A stretch of 46,273 nt of DNA. Source: an uncultured bacterium (lineage in GTDB: Bacteria; Bacteroidota; Bacteroidia; Bacteroidales; CAIWKO01). The notes under the pieces are model-generated. The model saw only the letters and a program-made list of their open reading frames with translations, was not told where the DNA came from and searched no databases. Both the position numbers and the translations under genes were made by a program. This document shows, in pieces, positions 16,930-34,259 of the stretch. How positions within the stretch are numbered: the first letter of the stretch is position 1; each line of letters opens with the position of its first letter. The DNA is taken from positions 1 to 46,273 of the forward strand of contig CAIOYH010000120.1 in the NCBI GenBank assembly GCA_903862465.1, given 5' to 3'.

Positions 16930-17181
16930 AAAATAAAAAATAAAATCAATAACAAAGAAAGGAAAATAAGCAACGAAGAAAGGATAATATTAAACATAAA
17001 AAGGAAAGTATATAACAAAGAAAAGAAAGACTATAATCAAGAAAGGAAACTACATAGCAAAGAAACGACATGCTATAAACAAGAAAAGAATATTCATAGC
17101 ATAATATAGATAATACATAAAACAAAATGGAATGTCAATAACCAAGAAAGGAATAACAATTACGAAGAAATAAATTTCAAT
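16930..17181 (+). repeat. 21-bp-period degenerate tandem array 1
   Basis: Cutting the sequence every 21 bp from 16951 gives eleven consecutive units (16951, 16972, 16993 and so on to 17161), with a twelfth degenerate unit at 16930. Nearly all begin AAC/AAT/AGC and carry CAAAGAAAGG-like cores. No indels are needed over about 250 bp, although individual bases vary widely. There is no start codon and the frame has stops, so it is not a gene today. The array ends 30 bp before the -7 box of the 17247 gene. Nothing else was found in 16674-17207. Confidence 0.75.
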
Positions 17182-17210
17182 AAAATAGTAAGCGAAATGA
17201 AAAATATTTG

Positions 17211-17218
17211 TACCTTTG
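17211..17218 (+). promoter_or_regulatory. -7 box TAnnTTTG for the 17247 gene
   Basis: TACCTTTG lies 28 nt before the ATG at 17247 and 29 nt after the end of 21-bp array 1. It rules out the earlier in-frame TTG at 17208 as the start. Confidence 0.5.
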
Positions 17219-17246
17219 CTGTCGAAAACCAAAACAAAGGCAAAAT

Positions 17247-17981
17247 ATGGCACAAAGAAAAGTAGTGGTACGCAAATATAATATGTCTGACGGTGACCTG
17301 AGCGGTCATTGCAGAATGATTCGGATGTGTGTTCAACGCGATATCCTTGATTTCATGAATCGGGGTGTGAGTGAGGCTTTCATCGAGGCATTTCACCAAC
17401 AGCGATTGGATTGGGACAGCTTTGACGAGGATGTTGTCAAGGTTGGAGAGATTACACAAGCCACCGAATTCAAAGATGCGTCGGAGGAAAAGCTGCGGCT
17501 CGCCTTGCGAACCTATCGCACTATGGTGCACAACAAATGGGGAATCAACCATCGCAACTATCGCGTTTATAAATTCGAACGCCTGCATCACACCACCGAC
17601 GATATCCTGCATCGCTTGGCGCGAACCGTCAAACTTGTTGGTCCTCGCCATCTCGCCGACTTGGCTACCGAAGGACTCACGCAAGACATGTTGGACAATA
17701 TTGACCAACTCGACATCCAATTCGAATTGGATATGGACCTGCAACAAAATGCCCAAACCGAACGCGAAATTCAGACCCAAGAACGCATCGAAATGGGTAA
17801 CAGTTTGTATAAAGAAATGATGCGCCTGAGCAATATCGGCAAGGATTTGTATGCAACCACCAACTCCGCGCGCTATAAGGACTATATCATTTATCATGAG
17901 CCTTCCACCAAGAAACCCAAAGAGGAAAAAGCCGACCAACCGCCAAAAACTTCTAAGATTTCGAAAAAAAAATCTTCTTAA
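17247..17981 (+). CDS. Unknown alpha-helical protein with lysine-rich tail
   Basis: 244 residues starting MAQRKVVVRKYNMSDGD. There is no signal peptide or transmembrane segment. The body is helical and rich in Arg, Glu and Gln, and the last about 25 residues are Lys/Pro-rich and disordered. Around residues 100-120 NKWGINHRNYRVYKFERLHHTTDD is a basic, aromatic patch. The family is not recognised with certainty; such 200-250-residue cytoplasmic proteins are scattered in Bacteroidota. Its promoter is directly downstream of a 21-bp repeat array. Confidence 0.75.
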   Translation: MAQRKVVVRKYNMSDGDLSGHCRMIRMCVQRDILDFMNRGVSEAFIEAFHQQRLDWDSFDEDVVKVGEITQATEFKDASEEKLRLALRTYRTMVHNKWGINHRNYRVYKFERLHHTTDDILHRLARTVKLVGPRHLADLATEGLTQDMLDNIDQLDIQFELDMDLQQNAQTEREIQTQERIEMGNSLYKEMMRLSNIGKDLYATTNSARYKDYIIYHEPSTKKPKEEKADQPPKTSKISKKKSS

Positions 17982-18030
17982 ATCAAAAAAAATAACGAAC
18001 TTTGTTGTGCAAATCCAAAACTAAATTCTG

Positions 18031-18339
18031 ATGACTGCAAAAAAACAATCCTCCCTTTCGTTCATTTTCGGGCTCGCATCCCTCGTGCTGTGTTGGTATT
18101 TTTGGTATCCCGTGTGGGGTATCGTGCTCACGGTGTTCACCTTCGCTTTCGGCGTGATGGCAATCTTATGGGGCAAAAAATTCATCCGCAACCACAAACT
18201 CCAACCCGATTGGCAAAAAACCACCGCCCTCCGCAACGCAAAATTTGGCTACGTCATGGGATGGATAGGGGTGTTGCTATCGTTCATTTGCTTTTTATTG
18301 GCATTATTATTCTCTTTATATTTTCACTTTTTAAATTAA
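18031..18339 (+). CDS. Small membrane protein
   Basis: 102 residues with three hydrophobic segments (about 9-22, 25-48, 72-98) separated by a basic loop (KKFIRNHKLQPDWQK). The layout resembles the DUF4190-type proteins next to it. It lies 49 nt after the helical protein and 6 nt before the next gene, so the three genes 17247-18705 may be one operon ending at the terminator at 18723. Confidence 0.65.
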   Translation: MTAKKQSSLSFIFGLASLVLCWYFWYPVWGIVLTVFTFAFGVMAILWGKKFIRNHKLQPDWQKTTALRNAKFGYVMGWIGVLLSFICFLLALLFSLYFHFLN

Positions 18340-18345
18340 TCAATT

Positions 18346-18705
18346 ATGGAAGAAAACTATCAACAAATCGATCAAAAAGAATTCCTGCCCGAGGCGGGCA
18401 GCGCTCTCACTTTCAGCATTTGGGGCAATGCCATTAGCTTACTTTATATGATACCATTCGTAGGTATTTTATGCTGCGTTGCTGGCATCATCCTCAGTAT
18501 TGTCGGGCTCACCAAAGGTCGTCGCGGCATGGAGGTATGGAAAAACGACAAACAGCGCTATCACGGCGGCTCCTTCTCCAAAACCCTCATTGCCTTCATC
18601 TTGGGCATCATCGGCATTGTGCAAGGCGCCTTACTGTCCATTTATGGCATCTTTTTCACCATCCTCATCATGAGCGGCGGATTTCGCCACATGCACATGT
18701 TTTAA
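18346..18705 (+). CDS. Small membrane protein, DUF4190-like
   Basis: 119 residues, with two hydrophobic hairpins joined by a basic loop TKGRRGMEVWKNDKQRYHGG. It is a distant paralogue of the 16275-16604 protein, with the same position of the K-G-R loop and following N/Y-rich stretch. Codons for LPEAGSA near residue 14 coincide with a perfect GC-rich palindrome (18385-18401) of the kind seen in nearby intergenic REP-like elements. Confidence 0.7.
   Translation: MEENYQQIDQKEFLPEAGSALTFSIWGNAISLLYMIPFVGILCCVAGIILSIVGLTKGRRGMEVWKNDKQRYHGGSFSKTLIAFILGIIGIVQGALLSIYGIFFTILIMSGGFRHMHMF
18385..18401. repeat. REP-like GC palindrome inside a coding sequence
   Basis: CTGCCCG and CGGGCAG are perfect inverted 7-mers around a 3-nt loop. 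The TGCCCG...CGGGCA core recurs in the elements at 18838, 20586 and 24471. Confidence 0.5.
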
Positions 18706-18722
18706 CGCATAATTCAAAGCAT

Positions 18723-18762
18723 AAAAAAGGCTGCCTCATCCTGTGAAGCAGCCTTTTTTTTA
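18723..18762 (+). terminator. Intrinsic terminator (bidirectional)
   Basis: A-run, GGCTGC (18729-18734), 13-nt loop, GCAGCC (18748-18753), then a T-run. It ends the 18346-18705 gene. Confidence 0.85.
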
Positions 18763-18784
18763 ACCCTAATGGATTCATTTTCCC

Positions 18785-18915
18785 TTGACTCTTGGAATTT
18801 GACACTTGGAATTTGGATCTTGGGCTTGACTTTTTGGGCGTGCCCCCGACAGAAAATGTCGGGGTCGGGCTTTCCGTTCCAAGTCCTCAGTCAGCGCCGC
18901 TTAAGGCGGCGCAGC
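18785..18915. repeat. Dispersed intergenic element with two hairpins
   Basis: A TTGGAATTTG-type microrepeat (18791-18816) is followed by a perfect 8-bp hairpin CCCCGACA/TGTCGGGG (18844-18864) inside GGGCGTGCC...GGTCGGGCTTTCCG. A second hairpin follows, GCGCCGC/GCGGCGC (18894-18912). The local GC content is far above the neighbourhood. The GTCGGGCTTTCCG block is one I recall as a common dispersed Bacteroidota repeat. No gene is visible in 18763-19006. Confidence 0.6.
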
Positions 18916-19006
18916 CTTCCGGGCTTTCCTCTCCAATCCCTCACGCGGAGGCAAACAGTCTGCATCTTGCCCACTGCTTGCCCCTTCGTGAACTTCTCAA
19001 AAACTT

Positions 19007-20548
19007 TTATTCCAAACTGCCGATAGCCGTTTCCACTGCCGCCAAAATGTCGCACGACTGCACCAACGCCTTCATCGTGTTATGGTCGGGATACAACGGA
19101 CGGTCGATATCCAAATACTCCACATGCTGACGGATACAATCCTTAGCCGCTTTGGTTCCATCGCCCAATTTATATTTCTCCTCATCAAACTTCTCGCGCA
19201 AATCCAACGCCTGAGCCGCTGCCATATATTCTATGCCCAAAATGCCGTAAGCGTTGTCCATAATCTGCAGATTTTTCAACACGCCGTTCATCCCCATCGA
19301 AACAAAATCCTCTTGGTCAGCCGCTGCGGGAATACTCTGCACACACGACGGCATCGACAAAATCCTTTGCTCCACTATTTGCATATCTGCCGTATATTGG
19401 CTCAACATCAAACCCGAAAACATACCCGCGCCCTTCGTCAAAAATGGGGGCAAACCCACGCTCAAAGCGGGATTATTCAGGCGGTTCATTCTTCTTTCAG
19501 ATAGAACGCACACCATCGTCACCACAGCGCCTACCATATCCATAGGCACCGAAACCGGCGTCCCTTGGAAGTTAGCGCCCGACAATTGCAGATTTTCTTC
19601 CGCAAAGAAAATGGGGTTATCCGCCACGCCGTTCAGCTCAATTTCCACCTGCGAACGTGCCCACGCAATTTGGTCGTGCGCCGAACCTATCACCTGAGGC
19701 GTGGAACGCATTGAATACGCATCCTGCACCTTCACTTTGATTTTGCCCGTTGCCAAATCGCCGTTCTGCGTCACCTTGCGGATAGAAGCCGCACTGCGCA
19801 CACCGCCCGCGAATCCGCGAACTTCCAACAAACGATGATTGTAGGGTTTCAAATTTGCTTTCAAAGCCTCCAACGACATTGCGCAAGCGATTTCTGCCTG
19901 CTTCAAAAAGTTGTTCACATCGTGCAGAATCAAACACGAAATACCCGTGATACAATTCGACCCGTTGATAGCTGCCAAACCGTCGCGCGCCTTCAATCCG
20001 GGCACTTTGATGTCTGCTTTTTCCATCGCGATTTTGCCTTCCAACAACTCGCCCTGAAAATAAGCATGACCTTCGCCCATCAGCAACAAAGCGATTTGCG
20101 ACATCGGTGCCAAATCGCCACAAGCACCCACCGAACCTTTTTTGCACACCATCGGGGTAACGCCTTTGTTGAGCATTTCCACGTAGGTCTGTGTGATTTC
20201 GGGACGGCATCCCGAATTGCCATGAGCATGCACATTGATACGACTCAACATCGCGGCACGTACATGTTCAATCGGCATCGGTTCGCCAATGCCGGCGGCA
20301 TGATTATAGATTAAATATTTTTGGAAATCTTCCACTTGGTCGTCGTTCAAAACGATTTCCGAAAATTCGCCGATACCCGTATTGATACCGTACATAATTT
20401 CGTGATTTTCCAACTTTTTCTCGAGCATGGTGCGACATTTCTCTATCCGAACCACTGCATCGGGGTGCAATTCCACCTTTTGTCCATTACGAGCAACGTT
20501 CACCACGTCCGTTATGGTTAAATTATTTCCTGTTATAATGAGTTTCAT
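19007..20548 (-). CDS. hutH: Aromatic amino acid (probably histidine) ammonia-lyase, MIO family with Ala-Cys-Gly triad
   Basis: 513 residues, the size of histidine ammonia-lyases, which convert His to urocanate. The catalytic Tyr motif YGINTGIGEF (residues 53-62), NHAAGIGEP (82-90) and the C-terminal AADQEDFVSMG are present. The cofactor triad that self-cyclises to MIO is normally Ala-Ser-Gly; here it is Ala142-Cys143-Gly144 (GSVGACGDLAPMS), with a clear TGT codon. From memory, Cys at this position in Pseudomonas HAL can still support the cofactor, so the enzyme may be active. The Asn-His pair at 82-83 is closest to the Ser-His of HAL rather than PAL (Phe-Leu) or TAL (His-Leu). No other hut genes are nearby, so the substrate is inferred. 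Confidence 0.82.
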   Translation of the reverse strand: MKLIITGNNLTITDVVNVARNGQKVELHPDAVVRIEKCRTMLEKKLENHEIMYGINTGIGEFSEIVLNDDQVEDFQKYLIYNHAAGIGEPMPIEHVRAAMLSRINVHAHGNSGCRPEITQTYVEMLNKGVTPMVCKKGSVGACGDLAPMSQIALLLMGEGHAYFQGELLEGKIAMEKADIKVPGLKARDGLAAINGSNCITGISCLILHDVNNFLKQAEIACAMSLEALKANLKPYNHRLLEVRGFAGGVRSAASIRKVTQNGDLATGKIKVKVQDAYSMRSTPQVIGSAHDQIAWARSQVEIELNGVADNPIFFAEENLQLSGANFQGTPVSVPMDMVGAVVTMVCVLSERRMNRLNNPALSVGLPPFLTKGAGMFSGLMLSQYTADMQIVEQRILSMPSCVQSIPAAADQEDFVSMGMNGVLKNLQIMDNAYGILGIEYMAAAQALDLREKFDEEKYKLGDGTKAAKDCIRQHVEYLDIDRPLYPDHNTMKALVQSCDILAAVETAIGSLE

Positions 20549-20585
20549 TTTTATGATTTTTGATTTATGATATTAAAATTTTGAT

Positions 20586-20615
20586 TACGCCTGCCCGACT
20601 GATTTTTTCAGACGG
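20586..20615. repeat. REP-like palindromic element
   Basis: GCCTGCCCGACTGA, T-rich loop, TCAGACGGG: a 9-bp stem with one mismatch. It is nearly identical in its left half to the element at 24471, which marks it as a dispersed repeat. It sits just upstream of the lyase gene. Confidence 0.55.
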
Positions 20616-20672
20616 GAGTTGTGATTAATTATGTGTGATGTATGAATTGAGAATTCATCATGATGCCTTAGA

Positions 20673-20795
20673 AGGGGTTCTAAAAATTAGATTTTTCGAG
20701 GCGGACAAGGTTTTTAAAAGCGCAGTTTACTCAAGTAAATGAGCATTTTAAAAATCGAAGTCCAACGATGAAAAAACAATTTATAGAACTCCCGT
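20673..20795. repeat. MITE-like imperfect 120-bp palindrome
   Basis: Two arms of about 60 nt are inverted copies of each other. GGGGTTCTAAAAATT at the left matches the reverse complement of AATTTATAGAACTCCC at the right. Further paired blocks are TTTTTC, GGAC, TTTTTAAAA and TTTACT, with the centre at TTTACTCAAGTAAA. There is no coding capacity. Structure and size fit a miniature inverted-repeat element or a large structured RNA. The rest of 20549-20921 shows nothing recognisable. Confidence 0.6.
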
Positions 20796-20921
20796 TATGT
20801 AATATAAAGCAGGGGGGAGCGCCTCAGCAGAGTCCGGCGCGGTTGATTTTAATTTTAAACTTCAGAAACCAGTTATTCATTCGTTGCAAACTTTATTGAA
20901 TTGAATTCGGGAGCAAATGTA

Positions 20922-22289
20922 CTACTTTTTCAACAATGCAATTATTTCTTGTAAAGATTTTTTTTCCATTGCCCCTGTTTGCATATTTTTTAGCGTGAAA
21001 CAATTCTCCTGCATCTCAGTGCTGCCGCCCGATGCAACGTAAGGAATCTTCCGCGCATCGGCGTATGAAAATTGTTTTTTTAATTTGGCATTATCGGGAT
21101 ATAACTCCGAAGAAATGCCCGCCTGCCGAATTTCCGCCAAAGCTTTCAGCGCATAAATCATCTCCGCCTCGCCATGATTGGTGAAGAGCAGTTGGGTGGA
21201 TATTTCCGCATTCTCGGGAAACAATTTGAGTTCGTTCATCACATCACAAATCCTATCAGCCCCAAACGAAACCCCAACCCCCGAAACATCGGGCAAGCCA
21301 AATATGCCCGTCAAATCGTCATACCTGCCGCCGCCACAGATGCTTCCCATCGCCACATCATTTGCCTTCACCTCGAGAATCGCGCCCGTGTAATAGTTCA
21401 AACCGCGGGCGAGCGTTGGATCAAATTCTACTTTAGCTTTTATATTACAATTAGTCAGATATCCGAAAATAGTTGCAATTTCATTCCAACCAAGTATACC
21501 AACTTCGGAAGAAAACTGAACAATAGATTTGAAGTTATCAAACTTATTCTCTGAGCTAAAAGTATTATCAAAAAACCCAATTAATTTATTTATAGCATCT
21601 ATTGAAATTTCTTTGGATATAAGTTCTTTAATAACTCCTTCCTTACCTATCTTCTCAAATTTGTCAATAGCTGTAACAATATCTACAATTTTATTTGACT
21701 CGCCTATCACTTCGGCGATGCCGCTCAATATTTTTCTATTGTTTAATTTTATGGTGATATTCAATCCAAGTTGCTGAAAAACGGCATCAATAATCTGTAT
21801 CAACTCCACCTCATTCAACAAAGAATTGCTGCCGATTACATCCACATCGCATTGATAAAACTCCCGATAGCGTCCCTTTTGGGGACGGTCGGCGCGCCAC
21901 ACGGGCTGAATCTGATAGCGTTTAAACGGAAAGGTGATTTCGTTACGATTCTGCACCACATAGCGCGCAAAAGGCACCGTCAAATCATAGCGCAAGGCTT
22001 TCTCACACATCCGTGCCGCCAATTTTGTCGTGCTCGAATTTTGAATATCTTCATTCGAAATGCCTTCCAAATAATTCCCCGAGTTCAGTATTTTAAATAT
22101 CAGTCGGTCGCCTTCTTCGCCATATTTCCCTGTCAGCGTGCTGAGGTTTTCCATCGCAGGCGTCTCAATCGGCAAATAGCCATACAAACGAAAAACGTCT
22201 TCCACGGTTTGAAAGATATACTTCCGCCGAATCATCTCGGCGGGCGAGAAGTCGCGGGTGCCTTTGGGTATAGAAACATTTACTGCCAT
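20922..22289 (-). CDS. hisS: Histidyl-tRNA synthetase
   Basis: 455 residues, class II synthetase. It starts [12 protein letters not shown] (motif 1 region). Motif 2 is seen as [32 protein letters not shown], and the His-specific GLNYYTGAI and motif 3 [13 protein letters not shown] are present. The C-terminal anticodon-binding domain (about 365-455) has the family pattern [18 protein letters not shown]. It charges tRNA-His. It is the single leftward gene after the GDPD gene. Confidence 0.96.
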
Positions 22290-22302
22290 CTGATATTTTT
22301 TG

Positions 22303-22310
22303 CAAAAATA
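22303..22310 (-). promoter_or_regulatory. -7 box TAnnTTTG for hisS
   Basis: The minus strand reads TATTTTTG 13 nt before the ATG at 22289. Confidence 0.45.
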
Positions 22311-22322
22311 GGAAATATTCCG

Positions 22323-23141
22323 TTACTGTGCCATTAAGTCTTTCAATAATTTCGGATTATTGGTGATAATACCATCCGCACCGTTGGCAATCATTTTCTC
22401 CATACGCTCGGGATTATCCACCGTCCACACATACACTTTTTTGTGCAACGCATGAATATAATCTATCACTTTTTTACTTGCAAACATGTGAAAGATATTA
22501 ATCTCTGAGATAAAACCTATGGCTTCTTTATCCGTTTTCAACTTCGCGTAAATCGTTTTCACAAACAGCAATGCCGTACTGATTTTTGCATCAAGTTCGT
22601 GAACTTTCTTCACCGATTCATAGTTGAACGACTGCACCACGCACCACGAATACGCATCATGTTTTTGCACCAATTTTACCACATCTGCCTCAATATCGCC
22701 CGAAGCATTGTCGGGAGTTTTTATTTCAATCATCACCGAACATTGCCCATGTATCAAACTCAACACCTCATCCAAAGTCGGTATCTTTTCATCTTTAAAC
22801 TTCTCAGAGAACTTAATTCCCGCATCCACTTTCATCAAATCTGCATACAGCATCGAACTCACCAAACCCTTGCCGTTGGTGGTGCGGTCAATACTTTTAT
22901 CGTGCATCACCACCGTAACTTTATCTTTGGTTTGATGCACATCAAGCTCAATGCGGTCAACCCCGATGGCGATAGCATTTCTGAAAGCTGCCAAAGTATT
23001 TTCGGGTGCCAACAAACTGCCTCCCCGATGCGCAACCACAGCAGTTTTTGTTCGGTGCACGGCTTGATTCTCGTTCTGCGAAAAACTCGTTTTCATAAAT
23101 AAAAGTGTTGAAAGTATCAGTAGGGAATTTCTTATGTTCAT
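22323..23141 (-). CDS. Glycerophosphodiester phosphodiesterase (GDPD), exported
   Basis: 272 residues. A signal peptide (residues 1-21, ending SFSQ) is followed by the GDPD TIM barrel: VVAHRGGSLLAPENTLAAF, then RIELDVHQTKDKVTVVMHD. These supply the catalytic His pair and metal-binding Glu/Asp. The C-terminal VYVWTVDNPERMEKMIANGADGIITNNP is typical. It hydrolyses glycerophosphodiesters to glycerol-3-phosphate in the periplasm or at the surface. The start overlaps the stop of the cupin gene by 4 nt, so the two are coupled. Confidence 0.9.
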   Translation of the reverse strand: MNIRNSLLILSTLLFMKTSFSQNENQAVHRTKTAVVAHRGGSLLAPENTLAAFRNAIAIGVDRIELDVHQTKDKVTVVMHDKSIDRTTNGKGLVSSMLYADLMKVDAGIKFSEKFKDEKIPTLDEVLSLIHGQCSVMIEIKTPDNASGDIEADVVKLVQKHDAYSWCVVQSFNYESVKKVHELDAKISTALLFVKTIYAKLKTDKEAIGFISEINIFHMFASKKVIDYIHALHKKVYVWTVDNPERMEKMIANGADGIITNNPKLLKDLMAQ

Positions 23142-23608
23142 ATTCCTGTTGCTTTACGTATCATTTCCAAGTAATCGGCAACCCTATCGCTGCCTTCTTT
23201 GGGTGCCCATTCTGCAAATATCTTATCCGTTTCGTGAATGTAAGGACCTTCCTTAAACTCGAAAGCCACCGAGCCCGATTCGAGCGATAAGATGGTATGG
23301 AAACGTTGGGGCGGAATTTCCACCGCAAGTGTATCGGTATTCTTATCCAACACTACAAAATCGCAAATCGCCCCGTCATCCTCAAATTCCACCAACAAAA
23401 GCCTGCCCCTCAAAACCGTAAACACCTCATGTTTCGGAGGCGTCTCATGCTTGTGAGGTCTGATATACGTCCCGGGTTCCAAAGCATTCAACAGACGTTG
23501 CAGCAGGGCATCATCACTTGTATGTAAGTTATAATTGATACGTTTGCGCGGCGATTGCTTTGCTTGCACTATGATTTGGTCGAGGAGCTTTTGTGTAATT
23601 TTAATCAT
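23138..23608 (-). CDS. WbuC-family cupin metalloprotein
   Basis: 156 residues. The start MIKITQKLLDQII at 23608 is the family's conserved N-terminus; further upstream codons overlap the -7 box at 23643-23650. Cupin metal motifs: RPHKHETPPKHEVFTVLRG and a late FHTILSLESGS. The C-terminal DKIFAEWAPKEGSD block is characteristic of the WbuC group found near LPS/O-antigen genes. The biochemical role is not established. It is translationally coupled to the GDPD gene. Confidence 0.85.
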   Translation of the reverse strand: MIKITQKLLDQIIVQAKQSPRKRINYNLHTSDDALLQRLLNALEPGTYIRPHKHETPPKHEVFTVLRGRLLLVEFEDDGAICDFVVLDKNTDTLAVEIPPQRFHTILSLESGSVAFEFKEGPYIHETDKIFAEWAPKEGSDRVADYLEMIRKATGI

Positions 23609-23642
23609 CTTAGATGTTCCGTATATTTTTTTATTTTGTTTA

Positions 23643-23650
23643 CAAAGGTA
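23643..23650 (-). promoter_or_regulatory. -7 box TAnnTTTG for the cupin-GDPD pair
   Basis: The minus strand reads TACCTTTG 34 nt before the ATG at 23608. Confidence 0.45.
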
Positions 23651-23762: not shown

Positions 23763-23945
23763 TTACTTTATTAGTTTATGGCTGTTGGGAAAGGTAATAA
23801 AGTTTTGTTTGGTGCTTTTGATGATAAAGAGTGATAGGTAAAAGCCTATAAGGATATATAGGACTGAGGTTAGAATTTTAGCCCAACAAAGAAAAATAAT
23901 ACTAAATATACAAATAAATAAAAACTTCCAAAGCCCAATTTTCAT
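23763..23945 (-). CDS. Possible small two-helix membrane protein
   Basis: 60 residues: a basic start MKIGLWKF, one long or two short hydrophobic segments to about residue 43, and a basic tail. An AAGGCG stretch precedes the ATG. There are no homologues that I recognise and it may be spurious. It lies 48 nt from the 21-bp array 2, reading away from it. Apart from this frame and the array, 23651-24350 shows only a 27-codon frame at 23691-23774 that I cannot support. Confidence 0.35.
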   Translation of the reverse strand: MKIGLWKFLFICIFSIIFLCWAKILTSVLYILIGFYLSLFIIKSTKQNFITFPNSHKLIK

Positions 23946-23993
23946 CGCCTTAAATTTTAATCATTAATAATCCAATAAATGACTAATGATTTC

Positions 23994-24300
23994 CAACATG
24001 ATTATACCTTAACCCAAGACCATTATTTCTTAACCCAAGACCATTATACCTTAAGCCAAGACCATTATACCTTAACCCAAAACCATTATTTCTTCGTCCA
24101 AGACCATTATACCTTCAGCCAAGACCATTATTTCTTAACCCAAGACCATTATTTCTTAACCCAAGACCATTATACCTTAAGCCAAAACCATTATTTCTTA
24201 AGCCAAGACCATTATTTCTTAAGCCAAAACCATTATTTCTTAAGGCAAGACCATTATTTCTTAAGCCAAGACCATTATTTCTTAATCCAAGACCATCATG
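23994..24300. repeat. 21-bp-period tandem array 2
   Basis: Thirteen full units from 24015 onward, in exact 21-bp register, plus partial units at 23994 and 24288. Each starts CAAGACCATTAT or CAAAACCATTAT. Variation is confined to a few positions: G/A at base 4, a paired TT-to-AC change in the middle, and the last three bases. Units are directly adjacent without spacers, so this is not a CRISPR. Read rightward from ATG 23979 the array stays open and would give heptapeptides of the QDHYFLT / QDHYTLS type. Nearly every variable base changes the amino acid, so there is no sign of protein-level selection. Confidence 0.9.
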
Positions 24301-24414
24301 GACGCCTCCGGCATTGCTTAAGTAATTTATGGTGGCTATTAACTTCATAATGAATTACTTCTTAATAAAGCGAAAATTTATATTACGCTCTCGGGGAAAT
24401 GTTTTCCCTGTGTT

Positions 24415-24503
24415 TATTCTTGGCATTTGGTATGTGGAGCTTGGAATTTGGAATTTGGGGCTTAGTATTTGCCTGCCCGACTGCGTCATTCAGGCGGAGA
24501 TCT
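24415..24503. repeat. TTGGAATTTGG microrepeat plus REP-like palindrome
   Basis: An 8-bp-period run with TTGGAATTTGG (about 24420-24465) is followed by GCCTGCCCGACTG, 7-nt loop, CAGGCGG at 24473-24500. The same order, microrepeat then TGCCCG palindrome, is seen at 18785-18872. Confidence 0.5.
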
Positions 24504-27044: not shown

Positions 27045-29927
27045 CTATCGCATCAAAGTTATTGTACCCTGCAAATGATATTCTTTTTTGTCGTCTCCGG
27101 TAGCATCTAGGATATAAAAGTAAGTCCCGTCAGCACATTTGCCTTCGCTTTTGCTAGTTCCGTCCCACACTTCTTTGGTCACTTTTTTATCTGAAAATGA
27201 TTCTCCATTATAATTATATACCTTTTTGCCCCAACGGTTATACACGTCAATATTTATGGTGACGATACCTTCTGATTCAATAGAGAACCAATCATTTTTT
27301 CCATCTCCATTCGGTGTGAAAACATTTGGAATATGCATACTTGAAGGTTGAATGGCATGAACTACCATTTGATAGGTATCAGAACAATTATTGGGAGGAC
27401 CGCTGTTGACTGTCAGTGTAACGGTATAAATTCCCATCTCAGTATAAGTATGCGTTGGATTCACAGCAGTACTTGTAGTTCCATCGCCAAAATCCCATAA
27501 GTAGGTTGTTGCACTAATAGTTCCTGTTGAATTAAAACTAATAACGAAAGGAACATATCCTTCAGGAGGGCTTGGATTTGAAGAGAAAAATGCATCAATA
27601 ATCACATTAGTAGAAACATTTGCCGATTGTATCAAAGGACAATGATATTGTGAATAAGTAACGGTAACAGTATAATCATCGGGACATAAATTTGTTGCAG
27701 TTGCCGTGCTTTGTGAAGGGAATGTACTCCAATGATATGTTATAGGAGGGTCGTAAGTGCCCGATAATGTTGCAGTCACTTGTCCGTTACAACTCATGTA
27801 GCAAAATTCATTGGCAGGTGTTAGTGTTAAGGTTGCTTGAGGAGGTGTGGTGCCCACAGTTGCCGTTTGAATCAAAGGGCAATGATATTGAGAATAAGAA
27901 GCTGTAACGGTATAGGTCCCTGCACATAAATTCGTTGCCGTTTGAGTGGTTTGTACAGGTGTTGTGCTCCATTGATAGGTAACAGGTAGATCGTAAGTTC
28001 CCCCAATTGTAGCAGCCACTTGACCATTGCAAGCCCCAAGACAAAGTTGGTCGGTGGGTGCTACGGCTAAAGTTGCTGTTATTGGCAAGGTAGAAACTGT
28101 TGCCGATTGCGTCACCGAACAATTATGGGAAGAATAGGTAACTGTCACGGTGTAATTACCCGCACATAAATTACTCGCATTTTGTGTTGTTTGTGCCGGT
28201 GTTGTGCTCCATAAATATGAAACGGGAAGCTGATAAGGTCCTATAAGTGTATTAGCAATGCTTCCATTACAGCTATTAAGGCAATATTCATCACTCGGAG
28301 CTAAAGTTATTGCTAGTTGAGGCGGATTCACGAGAGTTACTGTACTTGTACTAGTGCAACCAATAAGATCCGAAACGGTAACGGTATAGGTACCGGCTCC
28401 AAGGCCTGTAGTCATAGTGGTTGTATCATTTGTCCCCGACCAAATGTAATGATAGGGCACCAAACCGGTAGCTGCCGCAACAGTCGCTGTGCCATCGGTA
28501 TATCCGAAGCAGGTGACAGAATCCACATTGGTAATAGCAGAAGATAGATTGCTTATACTCACTCTTACGCTATCTATTCTTGATTGACCACAGGCATCAG
28601 CCGTGGTCACATAATACTCTGTCGGGGAAGGCGGATTCACCACTATAGTTGATGTGGTCCCTAAACTATCTGCCCAAACATAGGATAAAGGTGCAAAACC
28701 ACCTGCTGCATTGATAGAGATGTTGGCAGCAGCACCCGAACAAATATAAAAATCAGGAGGCATAGAAGCGGTAATAGGCGTATAATCTTTAATGAGAATC
28801 GTAATCGTATCCATAGAACCGCATACCGTATTTTGATAAACTATATAAACAGTTTCAGTAGGTTCGGGAATACTATCGGATATTGGAATAATGATAAATC
28901 CTACGGAATCTTGTCCGGGATATATAACCAAACTATCGGGTACTACAGGATAATCCACTCCTTCAGTAGCAGTTCCTGAAATGGTGTAGTGTATCACAAT
29001 AGGTGCGGTTGGAGGTTGATTCAATGAGAAATTAATCACTTCATTATTGCAGCCTTCCACAGCAATAGTATCTATGTTTGAAGTATAATGCGTACTAAAA
29101 TTAATACCATTAGTCGAAAAACTATTTTCTTCTAAAAACACACCGGAATCATACACTTGGTCTCCTGCATCACCCACGGCTAATTTAATATGATATTGTT
29201 GACAGGGTTGCACAACGCACATCGCTGTATATACATTTGTAAGTCTATCATATTGATAATATACTCCTGATGTGTTTAACCAAGAGTATGCTGCGCCGGC
29301 TCCACAAACATTATCAATAGTAACATAATTTGTTGGGTTATTCGGCATCAATGCAATATTAATAGCACCGCCTGTAAAAGAACCTGAAATGCCGGGACCA
29401 CTTATAAAGAAACCAAATACATCATTATAATTCGTGTTACAAAATTCATCAAATTCGTCTGAACCAAATACATATCTAAACTTAATAGTATCTGCAATCG
29501 GAACAAAATCAAACTCTAAAACAGCTTTATCATAAACAGTGTGAGCAGGAATTAACAATTGTAAATCGGGGTCTGATCCAGTGCCCATCGCAGTTCCAAA
29601 ACTTCCTGATGAGTTTGGTCCGATAGCACCTGTAGCATTTCCGGATGCAATTACAACTCCACCTGTAAAACCCAATTGTGTGGTAGCTACGCCCGATGTT
29701 TGAAAACTTCCAACCATATTAGAATTAATCAAGCCTGAACTACCGTTGAAAGTGGCATTACTTATCGTAACCCCTCCTCCAACTAAAACTTGTTGAACCA
29801 ATTGCAAGGGAGTCATATTAAGTCCTCCGCCTTGTACTACAGTTAATTGTGCATTCGATTTAGTAACGTAAGAAATAAAAATCACTACGCAAATGAAGAA
29901 GAAACGCAACTTGTGAAAGTTTTTCAT
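27045..29927 (-). CDS. T9SS-exported surface protein: choice-of-anchor L, SprB-like repeats, PKD, gliding-type C-terminal domain
   Basis: 960 residues from ATG 29927 (MKNFHKL, signal peptide to about residue 27, SNAQ); an in-frame start at 29963 would mask the signal. Order of domains: choice-of-anchor L (about 30-260; FRYVFGSDEFDEFCN), a Calx-beta-like segment (about 300-370; GTATEGVDYPV), a Cys-containing SprB-like repeat, and three close repeats of about 70 residues each carrying NLCAGNYTVTVTYS-type ends. A PKD domain follows (YLWDFGDGTTS), then a type B T9SS sorting domain at the C-terminus (FTPNGDGKNDWFSI, VYNRWGKKVY, GTYFYILDA). It is cargo of the type IX secretion system, attached at or released from the cell surface, possibly an adhesin. 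Confidence 0.93.
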   Translation of the reverse strand: MKNFHKLRFFFICVVIFISYVTKSNAQLTVVQGGGLNMTPLQLVQQVLVGGGVTISNATFNGSSGLINSNMVGSFQTSGVATTQLGFTGGVVIASGNATGAIGPNSSGSFGTAMGTGSDPDLQLLIPAHTVYDKAVLEFDFVPIADTIKFRYVFGSDEFDEFCNTNYNDVFGFFISGPGISGSFTGGAINIALMPNNPTNYVTIDNVCGAGAAYSWLNTSGVYYQYDRLTNVYTAMCVVQPCQQYHIKLAVGDAGDQVYDSGVFLEENSFSTNGINFSTHYTSNIDTIAVEGCNNEVINFSLNQPPTAPIVIHYTISGTATEGVDYPVVPDSLVIYPGQDSVGFIIIPISDSIPEPTETVYIVYQNTVCGSMDTITILIKDYTPITASMPPDFYICSGAAANISINAAGGFAPLSYVWADSLGTTSTIVVNPPSPTEYYVTTADACGQSRIDSVRVSISNLSSAITNVDSVTCFGYTDGTATVAAATGLVPYHYIWSGTNDTTTMTTGLGAGTYTVTVSDLIGCTSTSTVTLVNPPQLAITLAPSDEYCLNSCNGSIANTLIGPYQLPVSYLWSTTPAQTTQNASNLCAGNYTVTVTYSSHNCSVTQSATVSTLPITATLAVAPTDQLCLGACNGQVAATIGGTYDLPVTYQWSTTPVQTTQTATNLCAGTYTVTASYSQYHCPLIQTATVGTTPPQATLTLTPANEFCYMSCNGQVTATLSGTYDPPITYHWSTFPSQSTATATNLCPDDYTVTVTYSQYHCPLIQSANVSTNVIIDAFFSSNPSPPEGYVPFVISFNSTGTISATTYLWDFGDGTTSTAVNPTHTYTEMGIYTVTLTVNSGPPNNCSDTYQMVVHAIQPSSMHIPNVFTPNGDGKNDWFSIESEGIVTINIDVYNRWGKKVYNYNGESFSDKKVTKEVWDGTSKSEGKCADGTYFYILDATGDDKKEYHLQGTITLMR

Positions 29928-30024
29928 TATTTTTGTTTTTATTAGTTGTACTCTTTTAGACAAATTATTTTTACAAATGGTTGTATATGATATAAAAAAT
30001 ATATACTATCTTGCAATTTTTTTA

Positions 30025-30032
30025 CAAAGATA
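30025..30032 (-). promoter_or_regulatory. -7 box TAnnTTTG for the T9SS cargo gene
   Basis: The minus strand reads TATCTTTG about 97 nt before the ATG at 29927. The next eight bases give a second box, TAATTTTG (30033-30040). Confidence 0.35.
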
Positions 30033-30061
30033 CAAAATTATATAACTAACATAAATTAAAT

Positions 30062-31027
30062 TTGAAACTACCTGATTTTATTATTGCCTTAGCCCCGATG
30101 GAAGATATCACCGACAGTTCGTTTCGGAGCATTTGCAAATCCTTTGGAGCCGATATGCTTGTTTCGGAGTTTGTGGCTGCTGATGCCCTGATTCGTAACA
30201 TAGAGAAAAGCTTCAACAAAATGCAGTTCAATGAAGCAGAACGACCCTTGGGTATTCAACTGTTTGGGAACAAACCCGAAGCCATGGCGGCAGCAGCCAA
30301 ATTTGCTACAGCGGTGAAGCCTGATTTTATTGACCTAAACTTTGGATGTCCGGTGAAGAAAATAGTGGATAAGGGAGGAGGGGCTGCTTTGTTGAAAGAC
30401 ATTCCGAAGATGGTGCAGATAGCCGAAGCTGTTGTGAAAAGCACCAATATCCCCGTCACGGCAAAAACTAGGCTAGGATGGGATGAGAAAAATATAGTGA
30501 TACAACAAGTGGCGGAACAACTACAGGATGTGGGTGTTCAGTTGCTGACCATACATGGGCGAACCAAGTCACAGATGTATAAGGGGGTTGCCGATTGGAC
30601 TATGATAGGGGAAGTGAAAAATAACCCCAAGATACATATCCCCATCATCGGCAATGGCGATGTTGACTCCCATCTAAAGGCATTAGAAATGAAACTCGCC
30701 TATGGAGTGGATGGCATCATGATCGGACGGGCTGCCATCGGAAATCCATGGATATTTCGCGATGTTAAAGATTTTTTGTTTTCGGGCAAGCTTCCGCAGA
30801 CGCCTACCATTAACGAACGCATTGCTATCTGTTTGCAGCATTTATCCAAATCTATAAACACAAAAGGGGAGAGGCTAGCGCTACTCGAAATGCGTAAACA
30901 CTATAGCGGTATGTTTCGGGCGTTGCACGATTTCAAACCCTTTCGGATGAAACTCGTGACAGTGGATACCTACCAAGAAATATTAGATACCTTGGAAGAA
31001 GTTCGAGTTTTTTATGACGAGATGTAA
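30062..31027 (+). CDS. dus: tRNA-dihydrouridine synthase
   Basis: 321 residues, FMN enzyme that reduces uridines in the tRNA D-loop. Motifs: IALAPMEDITDSSFR (FMN contact), DLNFGCPVKKIV with the catalytic Cys, AKTRLGWDE, TIHGRTKSQMYKG, GNGDVDSH and GIMIGRAAIGNPWIF. The start is taken as TTG at 30062: no ATG occurs before the conserved APMED motif, and an in-frame stop lies five codons upstream. The next ATG would remove the FMN-binding strand. Confidence 0.93.
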   Translation: MKLPDFIIALAPMEDITDSSFRSICKSFGADMLVSEFVAADALIRNIEKSFNKMQFNEAERPLGIQLFGNKPEAMAAAAKFATAVKPDFIDLNFGCPVKKIVDKGGGAALLKDIPKMVQIAEAVVKSTNIPVTAKTRLGWDEKNIVIQQVAEQLQDVGVQLLTIHGRTKSQMYKGVADWTMIGEVKNNPKIHIPIIGNGDVDSHLKALEMKLAYGVDGIMIGRAAIGNPWIFRDVKDFLFSGKLPQTPTINERIAICLQHLSKSINTKGERLALLEMRKHYSGMFRALHDFKPFRMKLVTVDTYQEILDTLEEVRVFYDEM

Positions 31028-31036
31028 GGGCTCGGA

Positions 31037-31735
31037 TTAATTGGCATTGAAATTAGCCATATCCCGGTCGCGAATTATACCATCTTGATAGGCAAAGGGA
31101 ATAAGTTTGCCTTCGCAGAATAATTCGCTCACGTCTTTGTTTTGATTGAGCAATATCGTATTGATGCCCAGTTGACGTGCGATGGGTAAGTTTTGCTCCG
31201 AATCATCAATAAAAACAGTTTCCTGCGGATTCAGACAATTTTCATCTAGCACCATCTGGTAAAAGTGTGGATTGGGTTTGCGAAGGTGTTCTTTATAGGA
31301 AAGATAAACATTATCAAACAACTCATTCAGGCTTTTATAACCATACTTATACTCAAGTTGCGCCGTGTAGAGGTCGTAATGCAGGCTGTTGGTGTTGCTC
31401 AGCAGGAAGGTTTGATAGTTCGGACGAATTTGTTCTAACAAACGGATACGTCTTTCTGGTATGTCCAAAATAATAGCATTCCAAGCATCCACTATTTGTT
31501 GCATCGTGGTCTGTTTTGGAAACAGTCGTATCAATGCTTCACAAAAATCTTTCGGATTGATGTCGCCCGTATCCAAGTCGTCAAACACCTGCGATTGTTT
31601 GGTTTTGGAATACAATGCCTCGAAGTTTTTTACGCCCAGCGCTATGAAAGCATTGATGCTTCGCATGAAGTCTATATTGATTATGACACCTCCAAAGTCG
31701 AAGATGATATTTTTTATGGGATGTTTCGAATCCAT
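31037..31735 (-). CDS. HAD superfamily hydrolase (YihX-like phosphatase)
   Basis: 232 residues. HAD motif I is IIFDFGGVIINID (nucleophile Asp13), motif II LLSNTNSLHY, motif III with KPNPHFYQMVLDE and motif IV FIDDSEQNLPIA. The second residue of the usual DxD pair is Gly (DFGG), as in the YihX/glucose-1-phosphatase group, so sugar phosphatase activity is likely but unproven. It is convergent with dus, with only 9 nt between stop codons. Confidence 0.88.
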   Translation of the reverse strand: MDSKHPIKNIIFDFGGVIINIDFMRSINAFIALGVKNFEALYSKTKQSQVFDDLDTGDINPKDFCEALIRLFPKQTTMQQIVDAWNAIILDIPERRIRLLEQIRPNYQTFLLSNTNSLHYDLYTAQLEYKYGYKSLNELFDNVYLSYKEHLRKPNPHFYQMVLDENCLNPQETVFIDDSEQNLPIARQLGINTILLNQNKDVSELFCEGKLIPFAYQDGIIRDRDMANFNAN

Positions 31736-32020
31736 CTATTTTTGTTTTTATGCAAAATAACGACAAAAGAATTAGGTGAAGAATTATTTTTAGTTAAAAA
31801 AATATAATTTCAATTCTTATGCTAAAGATTGGATTTGACAAGGCTGCGTGTAATAGTTCGACGGAAGGTTTTTGAGGGATAAATTCTGTGCATTTTTGAT
31901 GAGTATTTACTTTTGTAAACTGTTCCTTTTCTCTTCGAAATAAAGTTTTTAGACAATGGAAATGGATTTCGGATATTTATTTTTTGCCTAGTTGGTTGTT
32001 TATACGAAGGTATAAAAATA
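31736..32020. other. Intergenic stretch without recognisable features
   Basis: AT-rich DNA between the start of the HAD gene and the terminator at 32021. No open frame, RNA gene or repeat was recognised. Confidence 0.4.
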
Positions 32021-32055
32021 AAAAACCCTTGAACAGATTTTATTCAAGGGTTTTT
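32021..32055 (-). terminator. Intrinsic terminator (bidirectional)
   Basis: The 13-bp perfect stem AAAAACCCTTGAA / TTCAAGGGTTTTT with a 9-nt loop and A/T flanks ends the leftward gene at 32093. Confidence 0.85.
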
Positions 32056-32092
32056 GCCATTCGGAACAAACTAATCATCCTATCACCTAATT

Positions 32093-32719
32093 TCACACCA
32101 CTGTAATATGGAGTGCATCCAACCAAGGTGTCATGCCATCTTTTGTGATGCCACAAACACGTACCCAAACTTTAGATTTTTCTGCATAACCATCTAAGAC
32201 GATTCTTGCTTTAGTGGTTCCGCCACCCAATAGCCAATCTTTTTCTAATACGGGCTCGTCTTCGCCAACATAATACATCCAAATATAGGCACGAGTTTTT
32301 TTCATTGCCTTACAAAATGCTAATACTTCGCCAGGGTTAGCCCCATGTTCGAGCCAAAATTCGCGATGAAGTGTTGGTAAAGCTTCTTCTGCGGTTAAAG
32401 GAAAAGCTGATGACAACATTTTAGTTTCATCGCCATCCGTAATAGTATAAATGTACAAACCAAGTTTCAACATCTCTTTTTCGAGTTTTTTCCTAGCATC
32501 GCGCATTGCTTTACGCTCCAAAGCACCACCGGTACGTGCAGCGATTTCTTTTTCGGCAAGATCATCAACTAAAAGTTTTAAACTTGCTAAAGTAGGTTGG
32601 GGGGTCACAAAATTATCATTGTCCGTCATTTTTAAAATCACGGTGCGAACTATGTCAATGAACAATAAAATTGTAAACATTACAAAGCTCCAAATTGGTC
32701 TTCTTTTTCTTTTTCCCAT
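32093..32719 (-). CDS. Unknown protein with N-terminal helix and C-terminal fibronectin-like region
   Basis: 208 residues. A basic start and one hydrophobic segment (about residues 10-30) are followed by a helical block (PTLASLKLLVDDLAEKEIAAR through KLEKEMLKLGLYIYTI) and a C-terminal beta-rich part (RAYIWMYYVGEDEP, WVRVCGITKDGMTPW). The pattern of a helical module with a per-sample 'A..G.....R....R..L' stretch followed by a fibronectin-III-like end is one I associate with uncharacterised Bacteroidota proteins. An alternative start at the second ATG (32629) would remove the hydrophobic segment. The -7 box at 32747 favours 32719. Confidence 0.65.
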   Translation of the reverse strand: MGKRKRRPIWSFVMFTILLFIDIVRTVILKMTDNDNFVTPQPTLASLKLLVDDLAEKEIAARTGGALERKAMRDARKKLEKEMLKLGLYIYTITDGDETKMLSSAFPLTAEEALPTLHREFWLEHGANPGEVLAFCKAMKKTRAYIWMYYVGEDEPVLEKDWLLGGGTTKARIVLDGYAEKSKVWVRVCGITKDGMTPWLDALHITVV

Positions 32720-32746
32720 GGCTGTATTTTTTTAAGGTTAATAATG

Positions 32747-32754
32747 CAAAGATA
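32747..32754 (-). promoter_or_regulatory. -7 box TAnnTTTG for the 32093-32719 gene
   Basis: The minus strand reads TATCTTTG 27 nt before the ATG at 32719. Confidence 0.45.
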
Positions 32755-32950
32755 CAAAAAAAAAGAAGGCTTGCAGCCACTTGAAACCCCTGAAAATACT
32801 ATGCTCCGACTATGCTCCGCCTTTATACTTCTAACCTACATTGTGTCTGTTTTCTGCAAAATAAAATTCTAAGAACGAAAAATGAAAGAAATTTTGACTT
32901 TTGTTTTAAGAATAATGAATTTTGATTGTGAAGTAAAGACCTTTAACTTT

Positions 32951-32977
32951 TCATTTTTCATTTTTCATTTTTCATTC
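32951..32977. repeat. Heptanucleotide microsatellite
   Basis: Four successive CATT-type units with period 7 (CATTTTT) lie just after the 3' end of the 32996 gene on its strand. Confidence 0.6.
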
Positions 32978-32995
32978 CAACGAGTCGCACCCGTT

Positions 32996-33886
32996 CTATC
33001 CTTTCAAACTATATTTATCCAAAAGATCTTTCGTCTTACGGAGGATTTGCATATTCAAATTGGTGTCGTGTTGTGCATCAGAAACTAGTTTGTAATAGTT
33101 TTTTCTTGTGGGAAGTTTTTCATACGGGGGTGCTTGCAAATGGGGCTGCAAGTGAAGATACAAACCGCGATTGTACATGCATTTTATTCTTTTACAGCGA
33201 TGAAGTTTATGAAAAACGGTCAAAAAAGCATGTAAATGCTCATTGGGCACTGTGATGTAGTAATCTTTTGCTTGCGGATCGAACAATAGCGCAATGGTTT
33301 TTTTGTTTTTCACTCCTGGGAATGTTGAGGTCAAATCATATATAAAGGCATCGAGCGATATGTGATTTTCTTTATCGGATGCATCAATTTGCCATACGAA
33401 ATAGGTATTAGGATTCGATGAAGAACCCGATGCTACTTTTTGCATCTTTTTGTCATGAGGCATACCGGCAAGTTCTATTTCACCCACAAAAATATAAAAG
33501 ATAAGGTCATTCCATGAAATAGTATTGGATTCGCTCTGCATCCGTTCTTTCAATATGGCGCAATACACCTGTCGCTCTATATGTGCAAAGTGAATAGCTT
33601 CCGAAATCATGGACGTGATAAAATGCATCAACATCAGCCTATCATTTTCTGAGTGAGGCGGCTGCTCTGCTGACTGCATCCATTCGTTGGCAAGAAAAAA
33701 ATAATCGTTGACTACATCCCCAAAAAGCATTGAGTGGATTTCTGTATTGATTTGCGTGGCGTGTTGAAAAAAATGATTGCTCGCCTTCTCAAAATCCGAA
33801 TACACATTATGGGTATGCAAAAGAGGAACGATGCCCTTGAGATGAGCCACTGCATTGAGCCGCGCCAAAACTGTTGCAAAGTCCAT
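32996..33886 (-). CDS. Unknown cytoplasmic protein
   Basis: 296 residues starting MDFATVLARLNAVAHLKG. There is no signal peptide or transmembrane segment. The N-terminal half is helical and rich in His, with HFIT, HFAHIER and NDRLMLMHF segments. The second half has a mixed segment KKTIALLFDPQAKDYYITVPNEHLHAFLTVFHKLH and a basic C-terminus. No family is recognised. It lies 86 nt downstream (minus strand) of 21-bp array 3. Confidence 0.7.
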   Translation of the reverse strand: MDFATVLARLNAVAHLKGIVPLLHTHNVYSDFEKASNHFFQHATQINTEIHSMLFGDVVNDYFFLANEWMQSAEQPPHSENDRLMLMHFITSMISEAIHFAHIERQVYCAILKERMQSESNTISWNDLIFYIFVGEIELAGMPHDKKMQKVASGSSSNPNTYFVWQIDASDKENHISLDAFIYDLTSTFPGVKNKKTIALLFDPQAKDYYITVPNEHLHAFLTVFHKLHRCKRIKCMYNRGLYLHLQPHLQAPPYEKLPTRKNYYKLVSDAQHDTNLNMQILRKTKDLLDKYSLKG

Positions 33887-33971
33887 TGTGATGTCATTTT
33901 AGCCCATAACACTATAACGCCGTTTCATGTCTAATGCTTAGGGCAACATGAAAATATTTTTCCGTACCATG

Positions 33972-34259
33972 ACAAATTCGAATTTTACCAACTCGAATTC
34001 GATCTTTACCAACTCGAATTCAATCCTTACAAACTTGATATCATTCTTTACAAACTCGATATCATTCTTTACAAACTCGATATCGTTTCTTACAAACTTG
34101 AATTCGATCTATACAAACTCGAATTCAATCTTTACAAACTTGATATCGTTTTTTACCAACTCGAATTCGATCTTTACAAACCCGATATCGTTTTTTACCA
34201 ACTCGAATTCATTCTTTACAAACTTGAATTCGTTTCTTACAAACTCATGTTTGAATCGG
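33972..34259. repeat. 21-bp-period tandem array 3
   Basis: Twelve full units from 33987 in exact 21-bp register, with a 15-nt first unit at 33972 and a decaying thirteenth at 34239. Each unit begins ACAAACT/ACCAACT and carries in its centre either GAATTC or GATATC, two 6-bp palindromes that interchange from unit to unit. The ends vary among GATCTTT, CATTCTTT and GTTTCTT types. Read rightward from ATG 33948 or 33969 it stays open and would give FTNSNSI-type heptapeptides, stop at 34295. No ribosome-binding site is evident. The rest of 33887-34677 shows only a 9-bp hairpin at 34277-34307. Confidence 0.9.

What the first reader, a model, noticed from the sequence alone, without database searches (positions are those of the whole stretch)
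16930..34259. Three arrays of differing sequence but the same strict 21-bp period, each just upstream of an uncharacterised gene
Arrays at 16930-17181, 23994-24300 and 33972-34259 differ in unit sequence but all repeat every 21 bp with essentially no indels, even where bases have diverged. 21 bp is two B-DNA turns, so every unit faces the same side of the helix. Read toward the adjacent gene, each array ends 66, 49 and 86 bp before a predicted start codon, and all three contain an AAGAAA- or AAAGA-like core once per unit. Conserved spacing with drifting sequence suggests selection on phasing (bent DNA or a cooperative DNA-binding protein), or a heptapeptide-coding origin. I know of no described family with this profile. 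The link to function is inference, and one of the three adjacent genes (23763-23945) is itself doubtful.
Basis: partly seen in the sequence, partly recalled or inferred. Interest (0 to 1): 0.78.

Follow-up and report, generated by a model that had tools for sequence, protein, structure and literature searches.

The report
Unrelated DNA arrays sharing 21-bp period
An uncultured Bacteroidales lineage carries many short tandem DNA arrays between its genes that differ in sequence from place to place but nearly all repeat every 21 base pairs, two turns of the double helix, which suggests that the spacing rather than the letters is what is kept.

Summary
The three arrays are real and belong to a genome-wide class. 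In a 335-kb sample of this uncultured Bacteroidales genome, lag 21 gives 29 gap-free repeat segments (23 after removing heptamer repeats); lag 20 gives 3, lag 22 gives 1, lags 19 and 23 none. In 312 kb of a congener lag 21 gives 15 and lags 17-20, 22 and 23 none. Units are unrelated between loci. In 38 arrays, 1412 differences from consensus come with 6 indels (144 expected at the intergenic indel:substitution ratio). Array 3 has a counterpart at the same place and register in the congener, with largely different letters; the array 2 spacer of a 90%-identical relative holds a different 21-bp array. Coding, phased bending, an AAGAAA core and upstream placement are not supported as general features. 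Best reading: intergenic minisatellites that change in whole units while their register is held at two helical turns, most likely because something contacts the duplex once per unit. That step is inference; a 21-bp-specific expansion process is the main rival. Nine paper searches listed no class defined by period alone. New variant of a known kind (bacterial minisatellites).

The parts
16930..17204 (.). Array 1: about 13 units of 21 bp, core AATAACAAAGAAAGGA (read on +), strongly diverged
   Evidence: same place and core but scrambled units in G003
17211..17219 (+). TACCTTTGC, promoter-like site just after array 1 (Bacteroidetes TAnnTTTG consensus is recalled, from no call); G003 has TATCTTTGC
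   Evidence: sequence read
17247..17981 (+). Gene downstream of array 1, no Pfam match (ATG at 17247, in frame with the listed TTG start 17208)
23993..24299 (.). Array 2: about 14 units of 21 bp, ATTATTTCTTAACCCAAGACC type
   Evidence: single copy in genome; G003 has a different period-21 array in this spacer
24419..24471 (.). Heptamer (TTGGAAT-type) repeat beside array 2, member of a separate dispersed family
33975..34246 (.). Array 3: about 13 units of 21 bp in two alternating forms (GAATTC and GATATC centres)
   Evidence: counterpart in G001 at L203 about 1844-2077
32996..33886 (-). Gene downstream of array 3, no Pfam match; orthologue in G001 at L203 894-1781

Best explanation
The arrays are members of a genome-wide class of intergenic minisatellites locked to a 21-bp period. 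Shown: each locus has its own unit; arrays differ between relatives by whole units and homogenised unit types; the register tolerates substitutions but hardly any indels; arrays come and go between species, and at least one (array 3) has a counterpart in the same place and register. Inferred: the register is kept because the array works as duplex DNA contacted once per two helical turns on one face (21.0 bp = 2 x 10.5), for example by a nucleoid-type or cooperatively binding protein that depends on spacing more than on letters, so that an indel, which rotates all later units off that face, is selected against while base changes are tolerated. The likely effect is local, on neighbouring transcription or DNA topology. 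The protein is not identified.
For: Lag 21 dominates in two species while lags 19, 20, 22 and 23 give 0-3 segments, also with an indel-tolerant search (31 of 41 and 15 of 21 arrays of period 15-30). Units are unrelated between loci. Stringent cyclic alignment of 38 arrays: 1412 differences, 6 indels, 144 expected at the intergenic ratio, 70 if each of 689 distinct column variants counts once. G000/G003 alignments: arrays 146 substitutions and 1 indel (a multiple of 3), intergenic 481 and 49, coding 4136 and 24. Two arrays hold opposite-sign indels close together. Array 3 and its G001 counterpart align ungapped from the start codon: leader 53% identity at shift 0 (at most 38% at other shifts up to 12), array 48%, best of 45 shifts. 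No array of 37 overlaps a called gene, array-made ORFs aside.
Against: No binding data; uncultured organism. No 10.5-bp compositional signal, no shared motif, no preference for promoter-proximal sites. Most loci are not conserved: array 2 is replaced in G003 and its spacer in G001 is too short to hold an array. The arrays were found by a gap-free scan, so indel-rich arrays are under-sampled; unit exchange inflates substitutions: per aligned site, intergenic DNA predicts only about 6 indels in the 749 aligned array bases against 1 seen. The array 3/G001 unit similarity is modest (mean score p 0.013, best score p 0.25, consensus p 0.45). Three arrays of 20 bp exist.
Confidence: 0.42

Rival explanations
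1. A mutational ruler: a copying or recombination process of this lineage creates or extends tandem duplications in 21-bp steps regardless of sequence, and the arrays have no function.
For: Explains one period with unrelated units, restriction to intergenic DNA, rapid replacement (array 2 spacer; L029:12030) and whole-unit changes without selection. Arrays are richer in G+C (0.396) than other intergenic DNA (0.296) and most so when homogeneous (0.496 at identity 0.90 or more, n=11; Spearman 0.31, p 0.05), as if active amplification left its own bias.
Against: Strongly diverged arrays (array 1: 71 differences from consensus; no indel in the stringent test) should have collected indels. Register to the gene is kept for array 3. 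No known bacterial process with a 21-bp step comes to mind (recalled).
Confidence: 0.28
2. Ordinary minisatellites of common descent: one or a few ancestral 21-bp arrays spread by duplication and diverged in sequence; the period is inherited, with no function and no special machinery.
For: Some arrays share families across loci: the L021 type is found at several loci in G000 and G003 and travels with a duplicated gene end; a 42-bp array sits at different loci in G000 and G003.
Against: Unit similarity between loci equals shuffled, apart from orthologues, neighbours and one pair at 15 of 21; drift far enough to erase similarity should also have changed the period, given one indel per ten substitutions in intergenic DNA. 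Flanks share no common ends.
Confidence: 0.15
3. Heptapeptide-repeat coding sequences: 21 bp is seven codons and the arrays are small or decayed genes.
For: Indel:substitution ratio like coding DNA; GC 0.396 against coding 0.409 and similar dinucleotide bias (AG 0.74, TA 0.74); arrays 2 and 3 lie in ORFs 23979-24350 and 33948-34295; open frames exceed a simple column shuffle (86 against 71.2, sd 5.4, 0 of 200).
Against: No period-3 signal in units (k=7 z -0.6; coding 21-mers +2.2, sd 1.0). No 3-periodic variability in any of 40 arrays (smallest p 0.15). Array 3 against G001: codon position 2 differs least (19 against 39 and 39), but permuting unit columns gives p 0.22, and both species have a stop in that frame. 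5 of 40 arrays have no open frame. The excess falls to 86 against 76.4 (sd 5.7, p 0.07) when dinucleotides are kept. No Pfam match for the two array ORFs.
Confidence: 0.08

Closest known systems
BrickBuilt minisatellite/MITE of Porphyromonas gingivalis (PMC4596501; abstract and found passages seen)
   Same: Bacteroidales; intergenic tandem array without spacers; about two helical turns per unit (23 nt); gain and loss of whole units between strains
   Different: One unit sequence in 19 copies with leader, tail and terminal inverted repeats; here units are locus-specific, 21 bp, with no shared flanks or inverted ends
TAACTGA heptanucleotide repeats of Beggiatoaceae, Cyanobacteria and a few Bacteroidetes (PMC4679880; abstract and passages seen)
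   Same: Many intergenic direct repeats per genome
   Different: One 7-bp sequence; here the period is 21 and sequences differ. The TTGGAAT and TTTTCAT heptamer repeats of this genome are closer to that kind
[quoted passage not shown] outline and abstract seen)
   Same: Tandem repeats, some dyad symmetry, dispersal within genomes
   Different: They encode a 25-residue motif in ORFs; here units are 21 bp, without coding signature and with only weak, non-universal dyad symmetry
Plasmid iterons and partition-site arrays (recalled, from no call)
   Same: Direct repeats phased to helical turns and bound cooperatively, the way these arrays are proposed to work
   Different: Those share one motif recognised by one protein; here there is no shared motif and no known binder

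Membership tests
BrickBuilt-type MITE minisatellite | One conserved unit sequence at many loci | tested here: not met
   Pairwise unit similarity equals shuffled except orthologues, neighbours and one pair at 15 of 21
BrickBuilt-type MITE minisatellite | Common leader/tail with terminal inverted repeats | tested here: not met
   70 flanks of 200 bp: cross-locus hits are between neighbouring arrays, heptamer repeats and a few single pairs; own left/right flanks no more inverted than mismatched ones (5.9 against 6.0, n=33)
BrickBuilt-type MITE minisatellite | Intergenic tandem array changing in whole units | tested here: met
   0 of 37 in a called gene, array-made ORFs aside; 42-bp difference between G000 and G003 at L014:17588
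Heptanucleotide repeats | Period 7 | tested here: not met
   Lag-7 match 0.24-0.44 in the window arrays against 0.61-0.75 at lag 21; sampled G001 DNA has no lag-7 segment
CRISPR or other spacer arrays | Constant repeats separated by unique spacers | tested here: not met
   Units are contiguous 21-mers without spacers (print-out)
Coding heptapeptide repeats / PARCEL | Coding signature (period 3, frame-specific constraint) | tested here: not met
Iteron or partition-type binding array | Direct repeats in helical phase | tested here: met
   Period 21 with strong indel avoidance
Iteron or partition-type binding array | Shared motif across sites | tested here: not met
Iteron or partition-type binding array | A cognate protein that binds the repeats | not testable with these tools
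   No binding data

The most novel reading that the evidence does not exclude
A lineage-specific system that builds or maintains sequence-independent 21-bp register marks between genes: hundreds of loci (23 in 335 kb would scale to about 290 in this genome) whose letters are free but whose two-turn spacing is enforced, either by an array-reading protein that recognises repetition and helical phase rather than sequence, or by a copying enzyme with a 21-bp step.
Probability: 0.25. Interest if true: 0.85.

Novelty: new variant of a known kind. Interest (0 to 1): 0.62.

Why it matters
The bacterial tandem repeats I found described are families of one sequence. Here the shared property is the period alone, held across unrelated sequences and against indels at a level like that of coding DNA. 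If it holds in culture, it gives a direct test of whether helical phasing of non-coding bacterial DNA can be under selection independent of sequence, or it points to an unknown expansion process with a fixed step.

Tried and rejected
Dyad symmetry / RNA hairpins: over 45 arrays the best dyad in the unit consensus averages 4.07 against 3.61 (sd of the mean 0.125; above all 500 shuffles), a real but modest excess carried by a minority (7 of 45 at p below 0.05, for example L031:2249, L027:10239, L156, L110); within-unit covariation stands out only in L110 and the extended G003 array. Not the common feature.

Phased bending: no 10.5-bp signal. Coding: see rivals. Shared AAGAAA core: 5 of 40 against 4.0. 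Mobile cassette: the L021-type array looked mobile at first, but by my reading of the sequences the shared 640 bp is a duplicated gene end, a terminator-like hairpin and the array, and flanks in general share no ends. Heptamer origin (21 = 3 x 7): sampled G001 DNA has no lag-7 segment but 15 period-21 arrays. A lenient cyclic alignment ran into flanks (234 indels per 2245 substitutions) and was replaced by a stringent one. Origin of units in coding DNA, suggested by GC and dinucleotides, is not backed by period 3 and stays unexplained. Remnants of decayed arrays in other intergenic DNA: lag 21 is the top lag in G000 (0.316 against a median of 0.290) but not in G001.

Samples and dropped rows: 20 stretches of G000 were taken besides the window. 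Nine come from contigs with chance-level matches to array 2; counted they hold 10 arrays in 170 kb against 10 in 119 kb for the other ten that carry sequence. L030 is all N and was dropped (335,273 of 338,052 bases kept). L020 fell below the length limit, so later tests use 40 arrays (22 G000, 15 G001, 3 G003) of 45; 5 from other Bacteroidales were left out of most of them. The stringent indel test skipped two neighbours (38). G002 (63 kb) gave no non-heptamer array and G003 (59 kb) gave 5. Gene calls are a home-made codon-usage caller, not a standard annotation. The G003 searches scored 40 candidates each (of 148), and G003 is 81% complete, so absence there is not proven.

Literature: nine of ten searches used. 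None listed a bacterial class with one period and unrelated units; only open-licence papers are held, so absence in print is not shown.
Full report
WHAT WAS CHECKED. The window is a whole contig (46,273 bp) of a 4.23-Mb, 230-contig genome. Its closest held relatives are three congeners, G001, G002 and G003. G001 appears to be the public assembly CAIWKO01, an uncultured Bacteroidales bacterium (AlinenLipids_bin-7433): contig 35 has the same length (105,131) and mirror-image matches. The three arrays are present as described, with period 21 and no gaps. Local shuffles give none. They share no unit sequence, and arrays 2 and 3 exist once in the genome.

A GENOME-WIDE CLASS. I sampled 20 further stretches of the genome and scanned for gap-free self-similarity. 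With windows of 84 bp and at least 62% match, lag 21 gives 29 segments in 335 kb, lag 20 gives 3, lag 22 gives 1, and lags 17, 19, 23, 25 and 26 give none; lags 7 and 14 give 12 each, from a separate heptamer family. Removing 6 heptamer cases leaves 23 period-21 arrays (6.9 per 100 kb). In 312 kb of G001 lag 21 gives 15, and lags 17 to 20, 22 and 23 give zero. An indel-tolerant tandem repeat search agrees: 31 of 41 and 15 of 21 arrays of period 15-30 are 21. The enrichment is concentrated in this genus. 80 loci of other Bacteroidales and of G001 itself (1.34 Mb) have 12 lag-21 segments, of which 8 are heptamers, one (L088) lies in a long open frame and three are array-like (L110, L126, L145). 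511 kb from other families of the order have 2. G002 gave no non-heptamer array in 63 kb, so the density may vary within the genus.

WHERE THEY LIE. In G000 and G001 none of 37 arrays overlaps a called gene, once ORFs formed by the arrays themselves are set aside; about 85% of that DNA is called coding. Array 1 does sit just upstream of a promoter-like TACCTTTGC (consensus recalled) and a gene, and array 3 lies 86-89 bp upstream of a gene; array 2 is far from any supported start. Four sampled G000 contigs (L014, L020, L025, L027) begin or end inside such an array or within 15 bp of one, and two places in G003 do so too (L170 end, L231/L232), so arrays probably break the assembly.

HOW THEY EVOLVE. 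G003 is about 85-94% identical to G000 over the window's middle. Array 1 is at the same place with the same unit core but scrambled units. At the array 2 spacer G003 has another, more diverged 21-bp array of unrelated sequence, and no array 2 copy was found elsewhere in G003 (40 of 148 candidates scored). The L014:17588 array is kept and is two units (42 bp) longer in G003. At the L029:12030 locus G003 carries runs of identical units with a different consensus. At L014:9281 a 42-bp array is replaced in G003 by an array of the L021 type, while the 42-bp array lies elsewhere in G003; the L021 type travels with a duplicated gene end. A heptamer array at L029:7752 is cleanly absent in G003. These are dynamic minisatellites: whole-unit changes, homogenisation, gain, loss and replacement.

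REGISTER IS HELD. In aligned G000/G003 DNA, intergenic sequence has 49 indel events per 481 substitutions, coding 24 per 4136, arrays 1 per 146. Arrays differ at 19% of aligned sites against 8% for intergenic DNA, so unit exchange inflates their substitutions; per aligned site one would expect about 6 indels in the 749 array bases, against 1. In a stringent cyclic alignment of 38 arrays there are 1412 differences from consensus and 6 indels; 144 would be expected at the intergenic ratio, or 70 if each of the 689 column variants counted in 40 arrays counts once. Two arrays contain opposite-sign indels close together. Ascertainment by a gap-free seed of about 105 bp weakens this test but does not remove a difference of this size. 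Array 3 adds an independent observation: in G001 (neighbouring DNA blocks 68-79% identical) an array lies upstream of the orthologous gene; leader and array align ungapped from the start codon (leader 53% at shift 0, at most 38% elsewhere; array 48%, the best of 45 shifts, next 47% at one unit's shift), so GATAT in both species sits at phase 9 modulo 21 from the ATG although about half of the positions differ. The unit relationship itself is only modestly supported (mean score p 0.013; best score p 0.25; consensus p 0.45).

WHAT IT IS NOT. Coding: no period-3 composition, no 3-periodic variability, no open frame in 5 of 40 arrays, open-frame excess p 0.07. Bent DNA: no 10.5-bp signal. Hairpins: a modest excess of dyads, not universal. 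MITE: no shared ends. Spacer arrays: units are contiguous. No Rfam family other than tRNA matches the window.

MECHANISM. The best-supported reading is that the arrays are read or bound as duplex DNA once every two helical turns. Shown: one period, unrelated units, indel avoidance, whole-unit dynamics, one register kept between species. Inferred: the contact, the protein, and an effect on neighbouring DNA. The main rival is a mutational process with a 21-bp step. An unexplained observation bears on both: arrays are richer in G+C (0.396) than other intergenic DNA (0.296), and most so when homogeneous (0.496 at identity 0.90 or more), as if units came from elsewhere or active homogenisation favours G+C.

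COMPARISON WITH WHAT IS KNOWN. BrickBuilt of P. gingivalis (PMC4596501, abstract and passages) is the nearest described thing: intergenic, 23-nt unit, expansion in whole units, but one sequence family inside a MITE. TAACTGA repeats (PMC4679880, abstract and passages) are one heptamer. PARCELs (PMC2996958, outline and abstract) are coding. The nine paper searches (listed in Tried and rejected) showed no class defined by period alone. I therefore call it a new variant of a known kind.

Noticed in passing
arrays of G000 and G001: Array DNA has coding-like G+C and dinucleotide bias without any period-3 signal, and G+C is highest in the most homogeneous arrays.
   Followed up: partly
window 38511-41971: Fourteen copies of a 246-bp repeat (78% matches), probably part of a large repeat protein running off the contig end; not analysed.
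   Followed up: no
window 32948-32976 (TTTTCAT x4) and 24419-24471 (TTGGAAT type): Heptamer repeats of a separate dispersed kind: 33 of 35 reported matches of window 31000-36000 in G003 fall on the TTTTCAT repeat, and most G003 matches of the array 2 spacer fall on the TTGGAAT repeat.
   Followed up: partly
L029:7752-7853 against L231 near 6850: A heptamer array in G000 is cleanly absent at the orthologous place in G003, with a short sequence present on both sides of it in G000.
   Followed up: partly
L070:9524-9870 (G001): A 43-bp-period array lies between hisS and the GDPD gene in G001; in the window these genes are 33 bp apart with no array.
   Followed up: no
L014:9281-9878, L201:2365-2790, L202, L021:1378-1686: Arrays appear swapped between loci of G000 and G003: a 42-bp array and an L021-type array sit at exchanged or different places.
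   Followed up: partly
window 27045-29963: Large protein with SprB repeat, PKD and CHU_C type IX secretion domains.
   Followed up: no
L145:5246-5481 (Culturomica MAG) and L110:6598-7135 (Prevotellaceae MAG): Period-21 arrays outside the genus; both titles are metagenome assemblies. L110 has 25 units with the clearest dyad covariation.
   Followed up: no
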